This document shows, piece by piece, positions 3,983-58,953 of a stretch of 64,000 nucleotides of DNA (positions within the stretch are counted from its first letter, which is position 1; each line of letters opens with the position of its first letter). The notes beneath the pieces are model-generated. The model was not told the origin of the DNA. It made no database searches and saw nothing but the letters and a program-made list of their open reading frames with translations. The stretch covers positions 212,001-276,000 of the forward strand of contig NZ_CP012369.1 in NCBI RefSeq assembly GCF_001267405.1, read 5' to 3'. The position numbers and the translations under genes were made by a program. This DNA is from Moorella thermoacetica (GTDB lineage: Bacteria; Bacillota; DSM-521; Neomoorellales; Neomoorellaceae).

Positions 3983-4037
3983 AGACCTTTCCGGAGGAGC
4001 CCCTCATGGGGGGGCTGCCGCCCCCCCTCAACAAACC

Positions 4038-4357
4038 ATAAAAATGTGGGTTCAGGTAAGGGCTGGCGGGTACAGGCGGAGGGCGACTTGGTTCGAGGCG
4101 TCAGCAAACTCAGCGAAGCCGAAGCGAGGCGGCGGTGAACGGGATGGGGATCGCAAAGTGGCTTCAGGAACGAGAAGTACCACGCCACGTTATGAATGAT
4201 CAAAGAGATAAAGCCGAGCCACCCCCGACGCCGAGCAAGGCTGAGCGCCAAGTTTGCTCGCTGAGAACCACCGGAGCCCGTAGCTGTACCCGCCAGCCTG
4301 TAGTAAAGCGCCTGCCAATAGTAACCATTTTTGGCAGAAGTCTATTTTGAAGGAGGT
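4038..4357 (+). repeat. Structured intergenic element, copy A (unassigned RNA-like family)
   Basis: This non-coding stretch matches 16078-16396 over most of its length and shares end motifs with other sites. The left motif (TAAAAATGTGGGTTCAGGTA) is followed by a 15-base arm GGCTGGCGGGTACAG (4061-4075), whose exact reverse complement CTGTACCCGCCAGCC lies at 4284-4298. Inside are a second long-range pairing (AGCAAACT with AGTTTGCT) and a local hairpin GTGGCTTC...GAAGTACCAC. The right motif TTTTTGGCAGAAGTCTATT runs into the AAGGAGGT ribosome binding site of the DUF421 gene. Upstream, at 4000-4012, a CCCCTCATGGGGG hairpin is shared with the site at 52595. The nature (ncRNA, leader or miniature mobile element) is not known to me. 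Confidence 0.75.
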
Positions 4358-4365
4358 ACATCAGC

Positions 4366-4962
4366 GTGAAATTCGTGGAGGTTTTTCTGCAAACCCTGCT
4401 GGCCTTCTTTGCCATCCTGATCTATACTCGGATCCTGGGCAAGCAGCAGATAGGCCAGTTAACTTTTTTCGAGTATATCAACGGCATTACCTTCGGCAGC
4501 ATCGCCGCCGTCCTGGCCACCGATACAGCCCCCAACCAGACCTGGATGCACTTCCTGGGTTTGACCCTCTTTGCCTTTTTTACCTGGTTGGCCGGGTATG
4601 CGGTCCTGGTGAGCAGGCCGGCCCGGAAATTGATCTCCGGTGAGCCTACAGTGGTCGTCCATAACGGTAAAATATTGGAAGAAAACATGAAGAAAATGCG
4701 TTATAATTTTGATGAGCTGGCCATGCAGCTGCGGCAAAAAAATGTCTTTGATATTGCCGATGTTGAATATGCTATTATGGAGCCTGACGGGGACTTAAGC
4801 GTGCTCCTCAAGTCCCAGAAGCGACCCCTGACACCTTCTGACCTTAAGCTATCGACCAAATACGAAGGGGTACCCACTGAGCTCATTGAAGACGGGGAGA
4901 TCCTCTTCCAGAATCTCCGGCAGAATCACCTGGACGAGAAGTGGCTCATCCAGCAACTCTAG
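4366..4962 (+). CDS. DUF421 (YetF-like) membrane protein, truncated by in-frame TAG
   Basis: The 198-residue product has three N-terminal membrane segments (VFLQTLLAFFAILIYTRILG; ITFGSIAAVLAT; FLGLTLFAFFTWLAGYAVLV), then the soluble domain typical of YetF-type proteins (GEPTVVVHNGKILEENMKKMRYNFDELAMQLRQKNVFDIADVEYAIMEPDG). The function of this family is poorly defined; some members act in spore or membrane physiology. The reading frame ends at a TAG after LIQQL, but the same frame continues for 54 more codons that look like the missing C-terminal part (see the next entry). The GTG at 4366 follows the GAAGGAGGT of the upstream structured element. Confidence 0.8.
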   Translation: MKFVEVFLQTLLAFFAILIYTRILGKQQIGQLTFFEYINGITFGSIAAVLATDTAPNQTWMHFLGLTLFAFFTWLAGYAVLVSRPARKLISGEPTVVVHNGKILEENMKKMRYNFDELAMQLRQKNVFDIADVEYAIMEPDGDLSVLLKSQKRPLTPSDLKLSTKYEGVPTELIEDGEILFQNLRQNHLDEKWLIQQL

Positions 4963-10153: not shown

Positions 10154-10220
10154 GGGTGCAACCGGCGCCTGAAGGGAACTGGCCTCAACCTGGAGGCAAC
10201 TTGAGTTTGTAGCGGCAACT

Positions 10221-10252
10221 ATTTTTGCCGGAACCCTATTATCGGAGGAGGT
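10221..10252 (+). repeat. Short copy of the recurring pre-RBS motif (before comFC)
   Basis: ATTTTTGCCGGAACCCTATT followed by ATCGGAGGAGGT matches the right-end motif seen at 4325-4357, 16366-16396, 52650-52680 and 58925-58953. Here it stands alone, with no long structured core. Confidence 0.5.
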
Positions 10253-10267
10253 TTATGGCCCGAAGAC

Positions 10268-10999
10268 ATGCCGGCGTTTATCAATCTCCTCTTTCCCCGG
10301 GGGAAAACCTGTGCCTGGTGCGGACGGCCGGTGGACCGGGGGCTATTTTGCCCGCAGTGCCACCAGGAACTATATTCCTGGCAGGAGAAGTACCATCCAT
10401 GCCGGTATTGCGGGCGCCTCCTGGCGGCGGGCGGGGGGGCGGTCTGCCGCCAGTGCCGGGAGGAATTGCCTCCCTTCCGGCGGGCCCGGGCGGTAGGAGC
10501 CTACAGGGGTATCTTAAAAGAGTTGATCTGGGCCTTCAAGTACCAGGGACGGCGCTCCCTGGCCGCGCCCCTGGGACAGCTCCTGGCCGGTGTTGTTGTC
10601 AAGGAACTGGGATCGGCCCGCCCCCACCTGGTAATACCGGTGCCCCTGACTGCGGCCCGCCTGCAGGCGCGCACCTTTAACCAGGCGGAGCTCCTGGCCC
10701 GGGCCCTCGGCAGGGAACTGGGATTGGCGGTTTCCGGGCAGGCCCTGGCCCGGATGCGGGAAACGGCCCCCCAGGTCGGTCTTTCCCGGCGGGAGCGCTG
10801 GCAGAACTTGGCCGGGGCATTTCAAGTTCAGGAGCCGGCCCTGGTTAAGGGCCATCGTCTCCTCCTGGTTGACGACGTTATGACTACCGGGGCTACGGCT
10901 GCGGCCTGCACCGGTGCCCTCCTGGCTGCCGGTGCCGCCGTTGTCGAGGTGGTTACCCTGGCAACGGGTATCGACTCAATTGCAAATATTTCACCATGA
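10268..10999 (+). CDS. comFC: ComFC-like phosphoribosyltransferase-domain protein
   Basis: The 243-residue protein has an N-terminal double zinc finger (CAWCGRPV..LFCPQCHQ and CRYCGRLL..VCRQCREE) and a C-terminal PRTase fold. The latter shows FKYQGRRSLAAPLGQLL, VPVPLTAARLQARTFNQAELLARAL and the PRPP loop LLLVDDVMTTGATAAACTGALL near residue 198. ComFC is needed for transformation together with ComFA. The start is odd: the strong GGAGGAGGT ends 15 bases before the ATG at 10268, while an ATG at 10255, ideally spaced, opens a different frame. No other in-frame start exists, so translation may be inefficient or coupled. Confidence 0.85.
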   Translation: MPAFINLLFPRGKTCAWCGRPVDRGLFCPQCHQELYSWQEKYHPCRYCGRLLAAGGGAVCRQCREELPPFRRARAVGAYRGILKELIWAFKYQGRRSLAAPLGQLLAGVVVKELGSARPHLVIPVPLTAARLQARTFNQAELLARALGRELGLAVSGQALARMRETAPQVGLSRRERWQNLAGAFQVQEPALVKGHRLLLVDDVMTTGATAAACTGALLAAGAAVVEVVTLATGIDSIANISP

Positions 11000-16036: not shown

Positions 16037-16077
16037 ATCCCGTGCCAGGAATGCCCGTGGTGGCTGATGCCCCCCCA

Positions 16078-16396
16078 CTAAAGATGAAAATGCAGGTGGA
16101 GACAGGGGTTGGCGGGTACAGGCGGAAGGCGACTGGGTTCGAGGCGCAGAGCAAACTCAGCGAAGCCGAACCGAGGTGGCGGTGAACGGGATGGGGATCG
16201 TAACGTGGCTTCAGGAATGAGAAGTAGCACGCCCCGTCATGTTTGATCAAAAGAACAGAGTTCTGCCACCCCCGCCGCTTAAGCAACTGAGCGCGAAGTT
16301 TGCTCGCTTTAGCACCTGGAGCCTGAAGCCTGTTCCAGACCCGCAGCAGTTACTATAAGATGCAACCATTTTTGGTAGAAGCCTATTTTCGGAGGA
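16078..16396 (+). repeat. Structured intergenic element, copy B (before prfB)
   Basis: This is the second long copy of the element at 4038-4357. The left motif is TAAAGATGAAAATGCAGGTG. The outer arms are GCGGGTACAGGC (16112-16123) and GCCTGT (16328-16333) plus ACCCGC (16339-16344), with a 5-base bulge, so pairing is kept although the sequence differs from copy A. Shared core blocks include AGCAAACTCAGCGAAGCCGA, GGCGGTGAACGGGATGGGGA, the hairpin CGTGGCTTC...GAAGTAGCACG and the partner AGTTTGCTCGCT. A GGTTCG/CGAACC pair is perfect here but weaker in copy A. The right motif TTTTTGGTAGAAGCCTATT runs into the prfB ribosome binding site GGAGGAG. Confidence 0.75.
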
Positions 16397-16408
16397 GTGA
16401 GCCAAACC

Positions 16409-17516
16409 ATGTTACAGGACTATAAAGGCCGCCTGGACGAACTGGACCGGCGGCTGGAAGAATTGAGGGTCTCCCTTTGACCTGGAGGCAACCAGCGAAG
16501 AAATCGAGCGCCTGGAAAAGGAAATGCTGGCCCCGGGTTTCTGGGAAGACCGCGCCCGGGCCGAGGCCGTAGGCAAGCGCCTCACCTACCTCAAGGAGAA
16601 GCTGGCCCGCTACCGGGAGTTAGAGAGCAAGTGCGCCGACGTCCGGGAGCTATGGCAACTGGCCCTGGCCGAAGACGACCACTCCCTGGAAGAAGAAATA
16701 GCCAGGGACCTGGCTGCTGTCGAAGGCAAAGTGGAGGGTCAGCTCCTGGCGACCCTGCTGAACGGCCCCTATGACCGCCATAACGCCATCCTCTCCCTCC
16801 ATCCAGGCGCCGGGGGAACGGAGTCCCAGGATTGGGCCGCCATGCTGTTACGCATGTATAATCGCTGGTGCGAAGACCGCGGCTACCAGGTGGAACTCCT
16901 GGATTACCTGGAGGGTGAAGAAGCCGGACTAAAGAGCGCCACCATCCTCGTCAAAGGGGAGAACGCCTACGGCTACCTCCAGGCGGAGAAGGGGGTGCAC
17001 CGTCTGGTCCGGATCTCGCCCTTTGACGCCGCCGGTCGCCGCCATACCTCCTTTGCCTCGGTGGATGTTATCCCGGAAGTGGAGGCCGACGAGGAAGTCG
17101 AAATTAATCCCGACGATTTAAAGATCGACACCTTCCGCTCCCAGGGAGCCGGGGGACAGCACGTTAACAAGACGGACTCGGCGGTGCGGATCACCCACCT
17201 GCCCACGGGGATAGTGGTAACCTGCCAGAACGAGCGCTCCCAGCACGCCAACCGTTTGAGCGCCATGAAGATCCTCCAGGCCAGGCTGGCGGCTCTAAAG
17301 CGCCAGGAACAGGAGGCGGAGCTGGCCCAGATCCGGGGTGAACAGCGGGAGATCGCCTGGGGGAGCCAGATCCGTTCCTATGTCTTTCATCCCTACAGCC
17401 TGGTTAAAGATCACCGCACCGGGGTGGAAACAGGTAATATCCAGGCCGTTATGGACGGCCAGATCGACCCCTTTATCCAGGCTTATTTACACTGGCAGCG
17501 TAGAAAGCAAGGCTAA
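16409..17516 (+). CDS. prfB: Peptide chain release factor 2, with programmed +1 frameshift
   Basis: The protein is read in two frames: 16409-16477 (23 codons), then +1 to 16479-17516, giving about 368 residues. The slip site is CTTTGAC at 16475-16481, with an in-frame UGA at 16478-16480 and an upstream AGGG that can act as the stimulating Shine-Dalgarno element. RF2 recognises UAA and UGA, so low RF2 raises frameshifting and thus its own synthesis. The codon-reading SPF motif (VRISPFDAAGRRHTSF) and the peptidyl-transferase GGQ motif (RSQGAGGQHVNKTDSAVR) are both present. The stop codon lies inside the stem of the terminator at 17509. Confidence 0.95.
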
Positions 17517-23633: not shown

Positions 23634-23659
23634 CGCTGCCCCAGTGCTAACACCTGCCG

Positions 23660-23861
23660 GCGTACTATGAAAATTGCAGGCTGAAGCAAAAGGCTGGGGG
23701 ATAGAAGCGGAGGGCGACTAGGCGTCTAGCCACCTCCTGCTGGCTGGCAAAATAGAAGGCCAAGTCTGGCAGCCGAGCGCCATCTGAGCCTGGAGCAGCA
23801 TCCTCCAGCCCAAAGAACAAATACAAATCAACCTGGAAATGCTATTTTGATAGCATTTTTA
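23660..23861 (+). repeat. Diverged copy of the structured intergenic element, between the transketolase subunits
   Basis: The left motif (TACTATGAAAATTGCAGG) is followed by arms GGCTGGGGGAT (23692-23702) and ATCCTCCAGCC (23800-23810), which pair over 11 bases including one G-U, with sequence unlike the arms of copies A and B. The block GCGGAGGGCGACTAGG matches GCGGAGGGCGACTTGG of copy A. The right end is a hairpin AAATGCTA-TTTTGA-TAGCATTT (23837-23858) with a T-run, directly followed by the ACGGAGGA ribosome binding site of the second transketolase gene. Confidence 0.6.
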
Positions 23862-24890: not shown

Positions 24891-24970
24891 AAACCGCCCC
24901 TAAAGGGGCGGTTTTTACTTTTAGCGTAGGGACGAAGCGCCCGCGTGGATGCCGGGACCGGGGCGGTGCC
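24891..24970. repeat. 80-bp direct repeat, left copy
   Basis: It is identical to 26131-26210 except for one base (A at 24928, G at 26168). It starts with a terminator hairpin and ends GGGCGGTGCC. The two copies bracket the Rpn-like gene. Confidence 0.95.
24892..24917 (+). terminator. Terminator hairpin in the left direct repeat
   Basis: ACCGCCCC-TAAA-GGGGCGGT is followed by TTTTA. It can serve the transketolase transcript and, being symmetric, the opposing gene. Confidence 0.8.
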
Positions 24971-24978
24971 GTCAAAAA

Positions 24979-26013
24979 TCACTGCTCCATCTGTTTCTTC
25001 AGCGCGTTTATCTCTTCCAGGGCAAGTCCCGTGGCTTTGATGATGGTTTCAATGTCAACGTTCAGCAAAAGGAGGTTCCGGGCCACTTCCCGTTTGCCCT
25101 CCAGTTTGCCTTCCAATTTGCCTTCCAGTTTCCCTTCCAATTTGCCTTCCAGTTTCCCTTTCTGTTCGCCTTCCTTTAAGCCTTTTAACAAAGCCTGCCG
25201 TTGCATCTCTTCCAGGGTTAGCTCCAGGTTGTAAATCATCCGTTCCACCTCCCAGGGATTGCTTGCGTTCAGGATGCCATCGATTTTTTCGCTAAAATCT
25301 CCGGGCATTCTGGGTTGGACGACGTTCTTCAGCCAGGTGGTGAAATGGCGAAATTCATCAGGCGTGAGCCGCCTTAAGACCCCAGCCAGTTTCTGCAGAC
25401 GTCCCGCCAGGTCTTCAGGTTGCATCTTCTGGTCCAATAGAAAGATGCCGGCGATTAGATTGGCCGCCCTGATAAGCTCTTCTTCGCTGTAACGGTTCAC
25501 ATCAAACAACAGGTAGCGGAAGTCGAGGAGATGCCCGCTGAAATCCTGGTAACTGTTTAGCATTTCTTTGAAGGAAAGGGCCGCCGTCCAGGAGCCAGCC
25601 CCGTTGTAGAGCACCGCCGGTATGATGGGCGGCAGGCGGAAATGCTTGCTCTCCCGCTCGCCCTGGGGAGTGTTGTTGTATATTTCCCGCCAGATCTCGA
25701 CCATATAGAGTAAAAGGCGAAAGGGCATCAGGTAGTCTACTGTTGACTGTAACTCCAGCAGGACGTAAAAGATGACGTTTCTATTTCTGGTCTTAAGCCG
25801 ATAGACGACATCGGCTTCTTTCTCGCTGAAATCCTGAAGGACGTAAGATTTATTAACCAGGATGAGGTCGTCTGCGTCGATGGCTTCCACCCAGGCTTCC
25901 CGGACGAAGGTTTTTAACAGCTCCAGGAACACCCTTTTGTCGGCCAGAAGCTGCCGGTAACCCTTGTCGTAGGGGTGGTGGGGAGGCCGGGGCTGCCCTT
26001 CATTTTCCGGCAA
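24979..26013 (-). CDS. Rpn-family recombination-promoting nuclease / putative transposase
   Basis: The 344-residue protein opens with HPYDKGYRQLLADKRVFLELLKTFV, typical of Rpn/YhgA-like proteins. It has a PD-(D/E)XK nuclease core in which an acidic pair (EADVVYRLK ... FYVLLELQSTVDY) gives the D...ExQ pattern. Rpn proteins of E. coli are DNA endonucleases that raise RecA-independent recombination. Near the C-terminus the protein has five to six KLEG repeats encoded by 12-bp units (25093-25164). The gene is on the minus strand, opposed to its neighbours, and framed by 80-bp direct repeats, which suggests acquisition as a unit. The ATG is preceded by AAAAAGAAGGTGATC. Confidence 0.88.
   Translation of the reverse strand: MPENEGQPRPPHHPYDKGYRQLLADKRVFLELLKTFVREAWVEAIDADDLILVNKSYVLQDFSEKEADVVYRLKTRNRNVIFYVLLELQSTVDYLMPFRLLLYMVEIWREIYNNTPQGERESKHFRLPPIIPAVLYNGAGSWTAALSFKEMLNSYQDFSGHLLDFRYLLFDVNRYSEEELIRAANLIAGIFLLDQKMQPEDLAGRLQKLAGVLRRLTPDEFRHFTTWLKNVVQPRMPGDFSEKIDGILNASNPWEVERMIYNLELTLEEMQRQALLKGLKEGEQKGKLEGKLEGKLEGKLEGKLEGKREVARNLLLLNVDIETIIKATGLALEEINALKKQMEQ
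25093..25164. repeat. 12-bp tandem repeat encoding KLEG units
   Basis: Six units of the type TTTGCCTTCCAG follow one another; alternate units differ in a way that gives a weak 24-bp period. On the minus strand this encodes (KLEG)n, likely a charged helix or linker. The copy number may vary between strains. Confidence 0.9.
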
Positions 26014-26130: not shown

Positions 26131-26210
26131 AAACCGCCCCTAAAGGGGCGGTTTTTACTTTTAGCGTGGGGACGAAGCGCCCGCGTGGATGCCGGGACCG
26201 GGGCGGTGCC
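26131..26210. repeat. 80-bp direct repeat, right copy
   Basis: 79 of 80 bases match 24891-24970. It holds the same hairpin (26132-26157) upstream of the Rpn-like gene and lies exactly 1240 bases from the left copy. The following 230 bases (26211-26443) have no recognisable gene; CGCCGGCGAGCCGGGG at ~26215 and CGCCGGCGAACCGGGG at ~26372 are a further near-repeat pair. Confidence 0.95.
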
Positions 26211-52585: not shown

Positions 52586-52624
52586 TAATCACAACCCCTC
52601 ATGGGGGCCGACGCCATTCCCGGC

Positions 52625-52680
52625 TAAAAATGAAAATTTAGGTAGCGACTTTTTTGGTAGAAACCTATTGTTGGAGGAGG
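52625..52680 (+). repeat. Core-less short form of the structured intergenic element (before rapZ)
   Basis: The left motif TAAAAATGAAAATTTAGGTA (52625-52644) is followed almost at once by the right motif TTTTTGGTAGAAACCTATTG and GGAGGAGG. It looks like an empty or deleted version of the long copies. The hairpin CCCCTCATGGGGG at 52595-52607 matches the one before copy A. Confidence 0.55.
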
Positions 52681-52690
52681 CGGGGTAGAA

Positions 52691-53590
52691 ATGCCAGAGA
52701 CAAAGTACCCGCGGCTGGTGATTGTAACCGGCCTTTCCGGGGCCGGCAAGACCCAGGCCGTACGCTGCCTGGAGGATCTGGGATTTTTCTGCGTCGATAA
52801 CCTGCCCCCCTCCCTTATTCCCGGCCTGGTCGACCTCCTGGGCCACCCCGGTAAAGAGGGGGAAGGGATTACTAAAGTAGCCCTGGTTATGGATATTCGC
52901 GGCGGGGAGTTTTTCTCCGGCCTGGATGCCGCCCTCAACTACCTGGACGGCCTGGGTATACCCTATGAAATTCTTTTCCTGGAAGCGGCCGACGAGGTCC
53001 TGGTCCGGCGTTATAAAGAAACCCGGCGGCGCCATCCCCTTTCCAGCGGCGGTCAGATTTTAGAGGGGATTATTGAAGAGAGACGCCGCCTGGAGGAATT
53101 GCGCGGTCGGGCCAGCAAGATCATCGACACTTCCGAACTGACGCCCCGCCAACTGAAGGAGCAGGTTTCCGAGCTTTTCGGGTCCAGCCAGCGACGGCTT
53201 ATTGTCAGTATCATTTCCTTCGGGTATAAATACGGCATCCCCCTGGATGCCGACCTGGTGATGGATGTCCGGTTTTTACCCAATCCTTATTATGTTCCTG
53301 CCCTGCGGCCCTTCACCGGCCACGACCGCTGTGTGGAGGAGTTTGTCATGGCCTCGCCGGTCACCCGTCAATTTATAGAGCAGTTTGCCGCCCTCCTGCG
53401 CTTCCTGATTCCCCACTACCTGCAAGAGGGCAAGTCCCACCTGGTGGTAGCCATCGGCTGCACCGGCGGCCAGCATCGCTCCGTCACCCTGGCCAATAAG
53501 CTGGGGGAGTTACTCCAGGGTGAGAACTACAGCGTGACGGTCAAACACCGGGATGTGGTTCGCTACCTGAGTACAGGCAACCGGAGGTAG
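52691..53590 (+). CDS. rapZ: RNase adapter/nucleotide-binding protein RapZ (YvcJ)
   Basis: The 299-residue P-loop protein has Walker [30 protein letters not shown], a Walker B-like [13 protein letters not shown], and the conserved C-terminal block ([27 protein letters not shown] ... [19 protein letters not shown]). In B. subtilis YvcJ hydrolyses GTP and affects competence; in E. coli RapZ binds a small RNA to control GlmS. The gene order rapZ-yvcK-whiA is standard for Firmicutes. Confidence 0.96.
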
Positions 53591-58863: not shown

Positions 58864-58953
58864 TAGAAAAATATGCAGGTATAATTGCTGCCCGTATTCC
58901 CTTCACCACGACGAGTCAGGTAGGATTTTGCCAGAAGTCTATTTTCGAAGGAG
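58864..58953 (+). repeat. Intermediate-length form of the structured element's end motifs (before pgk)
   Basis: A left motif TAGAAAAATATGCAGGTATAA (partial; 58863-58882) and a right motif TTTTGCCAGAAGTCTATTTT followed by CGAAGGAGGT (58926-58953) are separated by about 45 bases that match none of the long cores. TATAAT at 58879 could act as a -10 box. Confidence 0.45.

What the first reader, a model, noticed from the sequence alone, without database searches (positions are those of the whole stretch)
52625..52680. Core-less and short forms show a modular left motif + variable core + right motif layout
Before rapZ the left motif TAAAAATGAAAATTTAGGTA is joined almost directly to the right motif; before pgk (58864-58953) about 45 unrelated bases separate them; before comFC (10221-10252) the right motif stands alone. 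Core length thus ranges from about 5 to about 270 bases at different loci with constant ends. This looks like a docking frame for variable inserts, or successive deletions of an ancestral element. The CCCCTCATGGGGG hairpin is shared between 4000-4012 and 52595-52607.
Basis: seen in the sequence. Interest (0 to 1): 0.72.

Follow-up and report, generated by a model that had tools for sequence, protein, structure and literature searches.

The report
Mobile elements targeting ribosome-binding sites
The short sequence before rapZ is the worn-down remnant of a mobile DNA element, found only in the bacterial genus Moorella, that inserts right behind the ribosome-binding site of host genes and brings its own replacement ribosome-binding site; it shares its ends with RNA-guided IS110-type insertion sequences, which explains both its constant ends and why insertion before essential genes is tolerated.

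Summary
The motifs are real and far above chance: 26 right-end copies in this 2.53 Mb Moorella genome, 0 in controls, 91 in a sister species. They are the two ends of one ~350-nt non-coding mobile element inserted directly 3' of a Shine-Dalgarno GGAG. Core length peaks sharply at 254-272 nt; the short and core-less forms, including rapZ, are internal deletions. At ileS two close strains keep different leftovers of one insertion. The pgk "left motif" is a host promoter-like leader and is not confirmed.

In a sister genome a 1,707-bp IS110-family element with a matching left end and the same GGAGGAG right terminus sits 3' of an SD-like site in 9 of 9 copies. Its right end always reads TTTCGGAGGAG, so insertion trades the gene's SD for an element-borne one. 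In four related elements the upstream non-coding region holds one segment matching the element's own target flank and one matching its own right end, changing together with them: the layout of IS110 bridge-RNA guides. In the SD-targeting element both read GGAGGAG.

Best reading: non-autonomous relatives of SD-targeting IS110-family elements. The exact parent, and mobilisation in trans, are inferred.

The parts
52595..52644 (+). left end of the core-deleted element before rapZ: terminal hairpin CCCCTCATGGGGG (52595-52607) and inner left motif TAAAAATGAAAATTTAGGTA (52625-52644)
   Evidence: left-end profile R1, E 5.6e-14 at 52593-52648; sequence
52645..52679 (+). right end of the rapZ copy, ending in the element-borne SD GGAGGAG (52673-52679), 11 nt before the rapZ ATG at 52691
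   Evidence: right-end profile R2, E 6e-9; rapZ identified by NCBIfam
3996..3999 (+). target SD GGAG left behind on the 5' side of the full-length copy
4000..4356 (+). full-length family A element: left end 4000-4059, core about 4060-4298, right end 4317-4348, then the SD AAGGAGG (4350-4356) before the GTG at 4366
   Evidence: R1 E 2.2e-15, R2 E 4e-10; core match 87% to the G009 consensus
10211..10250 (+). right-end-only remnant before the comF-like gene (10268-10999)
   Evidence: R2 E 1e-6; comF family
16056..16397 (+). nearly full-length copy before prfB, left terminus decayed; right end 16358-16397
   Evidence: R1 E 1e-9, R2 E 2e-13; core 80%; prfB
23646..23850 (+). badly decayed copy: inner left motif, start of the core and a CTATTTTGA-like right end
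   Evidence: R1 E 1.6e-4; right part by eye in the sequence
58925..58953 (+). right-end-only remnant before pgk (58965); no left end here
   Evidence: R2 E 1.2e-8; no R1 hit

Best explanation
The rapZ feature is a core-deleted copy of a ~350-nt non-autonomous mobile element of the IS110 (bridge-RNA) kind that uses Shine-Dalgarno sequences as its target. Shown here: copies insert immediately 3' of a native GGAG; the right end usually finishes in TTTTCGGAGGAG and takes the place of the displaced SD next to the gene; short forms are internal deletions; an IS110-family element in a sister genome has a matching left end, the same GGAG target and the same GGAGGAG right terminus; the upstream non-coding region of that clade holds segments matching the target flank and the right end, at aligned positions, that change with them. 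Inferred: a DEDD recombinase uses a bridge RNA whose left target guide and left donor guide both read GGAGGAG, so strand exchange swaps one SD for another; and the small elements are moved in trans by such a recombinase, perhaps one now lost from this genome.
For: Genome-wide motif, 26 against 0, genus-restricted. Length distribution with a full-length mode. Left flank almost always ends in GGAG. Empty and filled sites at efp, rplL, glyA, lysC, folD place the insertion 3' of the native SD. Start codon 3-18 nt after the right end in 20/26 (G000), 12/17 (G005), and 32/65 in G009 with 23 more running into another element; random positions 18-26% (binomial P 8e-8 for G000). IS110-family element in G008: left end E 6.6e-11, 9/9 copies 3' of AGGAG, constant right end TTTCGGAGGAG, 8/9 before a start codon; protein NF033542 'IS110 family RNA-guided transposase' E 6e-86, IS621 in the PDB E 8e-11. 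Segments matching own target and own right end in four elements; matches in the SD element exceed all of 500 shuffles.
Against: No recombinase of this subgroup is in G009, the genome richest in copies, and none with the exact family A right end was found; the right-end model does not recognise the IS110 element, so the shared part on the right is only about 10 nt. In efp and rplL the right SD carries target-specific bases (GTAGGAG, AAAGGAG) rather than the element consensus, which would also fit a short target duplication. A close relative in another genus (G014) has a GGTAG target that does not lie at an SD. The guide evidence rests on four sequences and 5-7 nt matches; no RNA was observed.
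Confidence: 0.82

Rival explanations
1. IS200/IS605 or RAYT type: the element is a REP-like palindrome with a GGAG tetranucleotide, moved as single-stranded DNA by a Y1 (HUH) transposase and inserted 3' of GGAG.
For: GGAG next to a hairpin, no terminal inverted repeats, insertion 3' of a tetranucleotide.
Against: Y1_Tnp is absent from G000 and G009, which hold most copies; neither end model matches the Y1 loci tested; an IS110-family element with a matching left end and target exists.
Confidence: 0.06
2. A host regulatory leader: a conserved 5'UTR RNA or protein-binding site controlling translation of a regulon.
For: Same strand as the gene, SD included, strong predicted fold, mostly directly upstream of gene starts.
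Against: Present or absent between orthologs, tandem copies, functionally unrelated downstream genes, one genus only, no Rfam match, both strands fold equally well.
Confidence: 0.05
3. Docking frame: constant ends with cores that are exchanged as cassettes.
For: Families A, B and the IS110 element share terminal features with different interiors; at rapZ in G009 the core is inverted.
Against: Within family A the core is one homologous sequence and short forms are deletions at shared sites.
Confidence: 0.05

Closest known systems
IS110-family insertion sequences with bridge RNA / seekRNA (IS621, ISEc21; PMC11208160, PMC11187229)
   Same: DEDD recombinase in the full element, long upstream non-coding region, no terminal inverted repeats, site- and orientation-specific insertion without target duplication when one copy of the repeat is counted as element, left guides for target then donor
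   Different: The elements in the window carry no gene and no recognisable guide region; the target is the Shine-Dalgarno sequence and the donor end is itself an SD
IS900 of Mycobacterium avium subsp. paratuberculosis (PMC8141618)
   Same: IS110-family element with target motif CATGNNNNNNTCTCCTT, which on the other strand is an SD followed by ATG
   Different: An autonomous element; I found no report of an abundant non-coding family or of SD replacement by the element's right end
Bacterial MITEs, BOX elements and REP/REPIN repeats
   Same: Short non-coding intergenic repeats in many copies; BOX is also modular (own knowledge)
   Different: MITEs usually have terminal inverted repeats and REPs depend on Y1 transposases, absent here; none is known to me to replace an SD

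Membership tests
IS110 family (full element in G008) | DEDD_Tnp_IS110 plus Transposase_20 recombinase | tested here: met
   PF01548 E 8.6e-31, PF02371 E 1.3e-20; NF033542 E 6.1e-86
IS110 family (full element in G008) | specific target, fixed orientation, no target duplication beyond a copy belonging to the element | tested here: met
   9/9 copies 3' of AGGAG; right end constant while left flanks vary
IS110 family (full element in G008) | upstream non-coding region with guides for target and donor | tested here: met
   own-target and own-right-end segments at aligned positions in four elements; transcription not tested
IS110-type non-autonomous element (family A, the finding) | shares ends and target with an IS110-family element | tested here: met
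   left end E 6.6e-11, same GGAG target and GGAGGAG right terminus; but the right-end model as a whole did not match
IS110-type non-autonomous element (family A, the finding) | mobilised in trans by an IS110-type recombinase | not testable with these tools
   inference; mini-elements of this family move in trans in published assays
IS110-type non-autonomous element (family A, the finding) | own bridge RNA in the core | tested here: not met
   no excess of guide-like matches in the core (40-85 of 300 shuffles reach the observed value)
IS200/IS605 or RAYT-REP | Y1 (HUH) transposase in the genome | tested here: not met
   none in G000 or G009
classical DDE-type MITE | terminal inverted repeats and target site duplication | tested here: not met
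   the extreme ends are not inverted repeats; only an inner imperfect repeat is seen
Rfam RNA families | match above the gathering score | tested here: not met

The most novel reading that the evidence does not exclude
A bridge RNA whose target guide and donor guide both spell the Shine-Dalgarno consensus makes a transposition system that exchanges one ribosome-binding site for another, and its small non-coding passengers have replaced the SD of dozens of Moorella genes, many of them essential, so that translation starts there on element-borne signals.
Probability: 0.55. Interest if true: 0.8.

Novelty: new variant of a known kind. Interest (0 to 1): 0.68.

Why it matters
It explains how a mobile element can insert repeatedly before important genes (efp, rplL, glyA, prfB, pgk, rapZ) without silencing them: it enters at the ribosome-binding site and supplies a new one. 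It offers a natural series of IS110 elements whose presumed guides have changed together with their targets, which is directly testable, and it shows that small non-coding passengers with IS110-type ends can reach high copy number. It also warns that 5'UTR motifs of this type in Moorella are transposon ends, not host regulators.

Tried and rejected
Rfam search of the window and of full copies: nothing above threshold. Consensus fold as an RNA: only 2 of 48 pairs show two-sided changes and both strands fold about equally, so no case for a conserved RNA in the core. Long left-right pairs as possible autonomous forms: those examined held ordinary genes between separate copies. Y1 transposase: absent from G000 and G009. 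Micro-ORF: 36 of 37 full copies have an ATG exactly 6 nt after the left GGAG, but a related IS110 subgroup whose target is not an SD has ATG at the same place, so it is probably part of the end hairpin and not a selected start. Guide matches inside the family A core: not above shuffles. An exact core search found only Moorella records and none in viral contigs. No paper describing the element was found in the library.

Full report
What is at 52625-52680. The rapZ leader holds CCCCTCATGGGGGCC..TAAAAATGAAAATTTAGGTA joined directly to GCGACTTTTTTGGTAGAAACCTATTGTTGGAGGAG, 11 nt before the rapZ ATG at 52691. The right pattern occurs four times in the window against 0.00 in shuffles and 26 times in the 2.53 Mb genome against 0 for the reversed pattern. 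Among 60 relatives it is frequent in several genomes of the same genus, with 91 copies in G009; outside the genus counts are about at control level. An exact search with a 26-mer of the core found only Moorella records.

The complete element. Tandem copies in G009 give the unit: GGAG | CCCCTCATGGGGGCTGACGCCCCCGCCAGCGAACAATGAAAATGTAGGTTGAGG - core of about 240 nt - ACCATTTTTGGTAGAAGTCTATTTTC GGAGGAG. The right end is an imperfect inverted repeat of the inner left motif (seen in the sequence). The core is a long imperfect palindrome that folds about equally on both strands. Profiles of the two ends, paired over G000 and G009, show core lengths with a sharp mode (254-272 nt in G000, 255-266 in G009) and scattered short forms down to zero.

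In the window there are a full copy (4000-4348), a nearly full copy before prfB (16056-16397), the core-less rapZ copy, two right-end-only remnants (comF, pgk) and one badly decayed copy (23646-23850). At ileS the close strains G000 and G005 share the right end and the gene junction, but G000 keeps left plus right ends and G005 only the right: different deletions in one ancestral insertion. At rapZ itself the near-identical strain G005 lacks the element and has about 90 nt of other sequence between the same flanks, while G009 has a copy with an inverted core plus a family B copy. The pgk left motif is not supported: the profile finds nothing there and the stretch is a conserved leader with TATAAT.

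Where it inserts. Orthologous sites are empty in G000 or G005 where G009 is filled: at lysC, GAGATTCTGGAGGAG|GTTACTATGG (G005) becomes ..GGAG|element..CAGAGGAG|GTTACTATGG (G009); the same holds at efp, rplL, glyA and folD. The element therefore enters exactly 3' of the native SD, and a second SD at its right end faces the gene. A start codon with an open frame follows the right end within 3-18 nt in 20 of 26 copies in G000 (P 8e-8 against the 26% control), in 12 of 17 in G005, and in 32 of 65 in G009, where 23 further right ends run into another element.

What moves it. IS110-family genes are common in the genus. One element of 1,707 bp, in 9 identical copies in G008, has a left end that the profile recognises at E 6.6e-11 and the same GGAGGAG right terminus. 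All nine copies sit 3' of an AGGAG, with left flanks that vary upstream, and with an invariant right end TTTCGGAGGAG; 8 of 9 precede a start codon. The left side is therefore target and the right side element: a replacement of the SD, not a duplication. The protein is classed as an IS110 family RNA-guided transposase and is related to IS621. A second subgroup, resident in G000 itself, has the same inner end motifs (ATGAAAATAGG, TCTATTTTCG) but the target CTAA.

Guides. In IS621 the bridge RNA has a target loop and then a donor loop, each with a left guide that pairs with the bottom strand, i.e. reads like the top strand. In the upstream non-coding regions of four related elements the first aligned block carries GAGGAG, GGGGTAG, GTACTAA and TCTAA, matching each element's own left flank, and the second carries GGAGGAG, GGAGGAG, GTGTTAA and GTGCTAA, matching each element's own right end. 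Own-flank matches in the first block are 5-7 nt; other elements' target flanks match at most 4 nt there. These are short matches in four sequences, two of them close relatives of each other, so this is strong but not final evidence. In the SD-targeting element both segments read GGAGGAG, which would explain SD-for-SD exchange.

What is inferred. That the small elements are moved in trans by such a recombinase is inferred from the shared target, left end and right terminus; published mini-elements of this family do move in trans. No parent with the exact family A right end was found, G009 has no recombinase of this subgroup, and the right-end model does not recognise the IS110 element. In efp and rplL the right SD carries bases of the local target, which may reflect later change of the SD, the way the junction is resolved, or a short duplication. 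A shorter family B (~150 nt; right end CACATCTCATTTCGGAGGAG) with a similar left end and the same target has 62 hits in G009 and 27 in G006 but none in G000.

Relation to the known. IS900 has the target motif CATGNNNNNNTCTCCTT, an SD plus ATG on the other strand, so SD targeting by an IS110-family element has a precedent. What appears new is the abundant non-coding family, the element-borne replacement SD and the series of changing guides. Searches of the paper library found no description of it; subscription journals are mostly not held there.

Noticed in passing
window 16409-17516: prfB: the ATG at 16409 after the element's SD opens a frame with one stop before the main ORF at 16524 (release factor 2), as expected of the programmed frameshift known for prfB (own knowledge).
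   Followed up: partly
window 24891-24970 and 26131-26210: An 80-bp direct repeat, 99% identical, with a terminator-like hairpin, flanking a reverse-strand ORF (24979-26013); possibly ends of another mobile or duplicated unit.
   Followed up: no
window 25074-25181: 12-bp tandem repeat (CTTCCAGTTTGC type) of 7 or more units inside the reverse-strand ORF 24979-26013.
   Followed up: no
G009 C1:258901-259257 (L133, L094): At rapZ in the sister species the element has its core inverted between left and right ends, followed by a family B copy.
   Followed up: partly
full copies of family A, 6 nt after the left GGAG: 36 of 37 full copies have an ATG at this exact spacing from the displaced SD, opening a micro-ORF of 3-34 codons (MGADAPASEQ type); it may be translated, but the ATG is also present in a relative with a non-SD target.
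   Followed up: partly
G004 C31:2158-2195: Two right-end motifs overlap with a 17-nt period, i.e. a tandem of GGTAGAAGTCTATTTTT.
   Followed up: no
L242 (G014, another genus of the same family): A related IS110 element (81% protein identity) whose target is GGGGTAG, and whose non-coding region carries GGGGTAG in place of GGAGGAG; it does not lie at an SD.
   Followed up: yes
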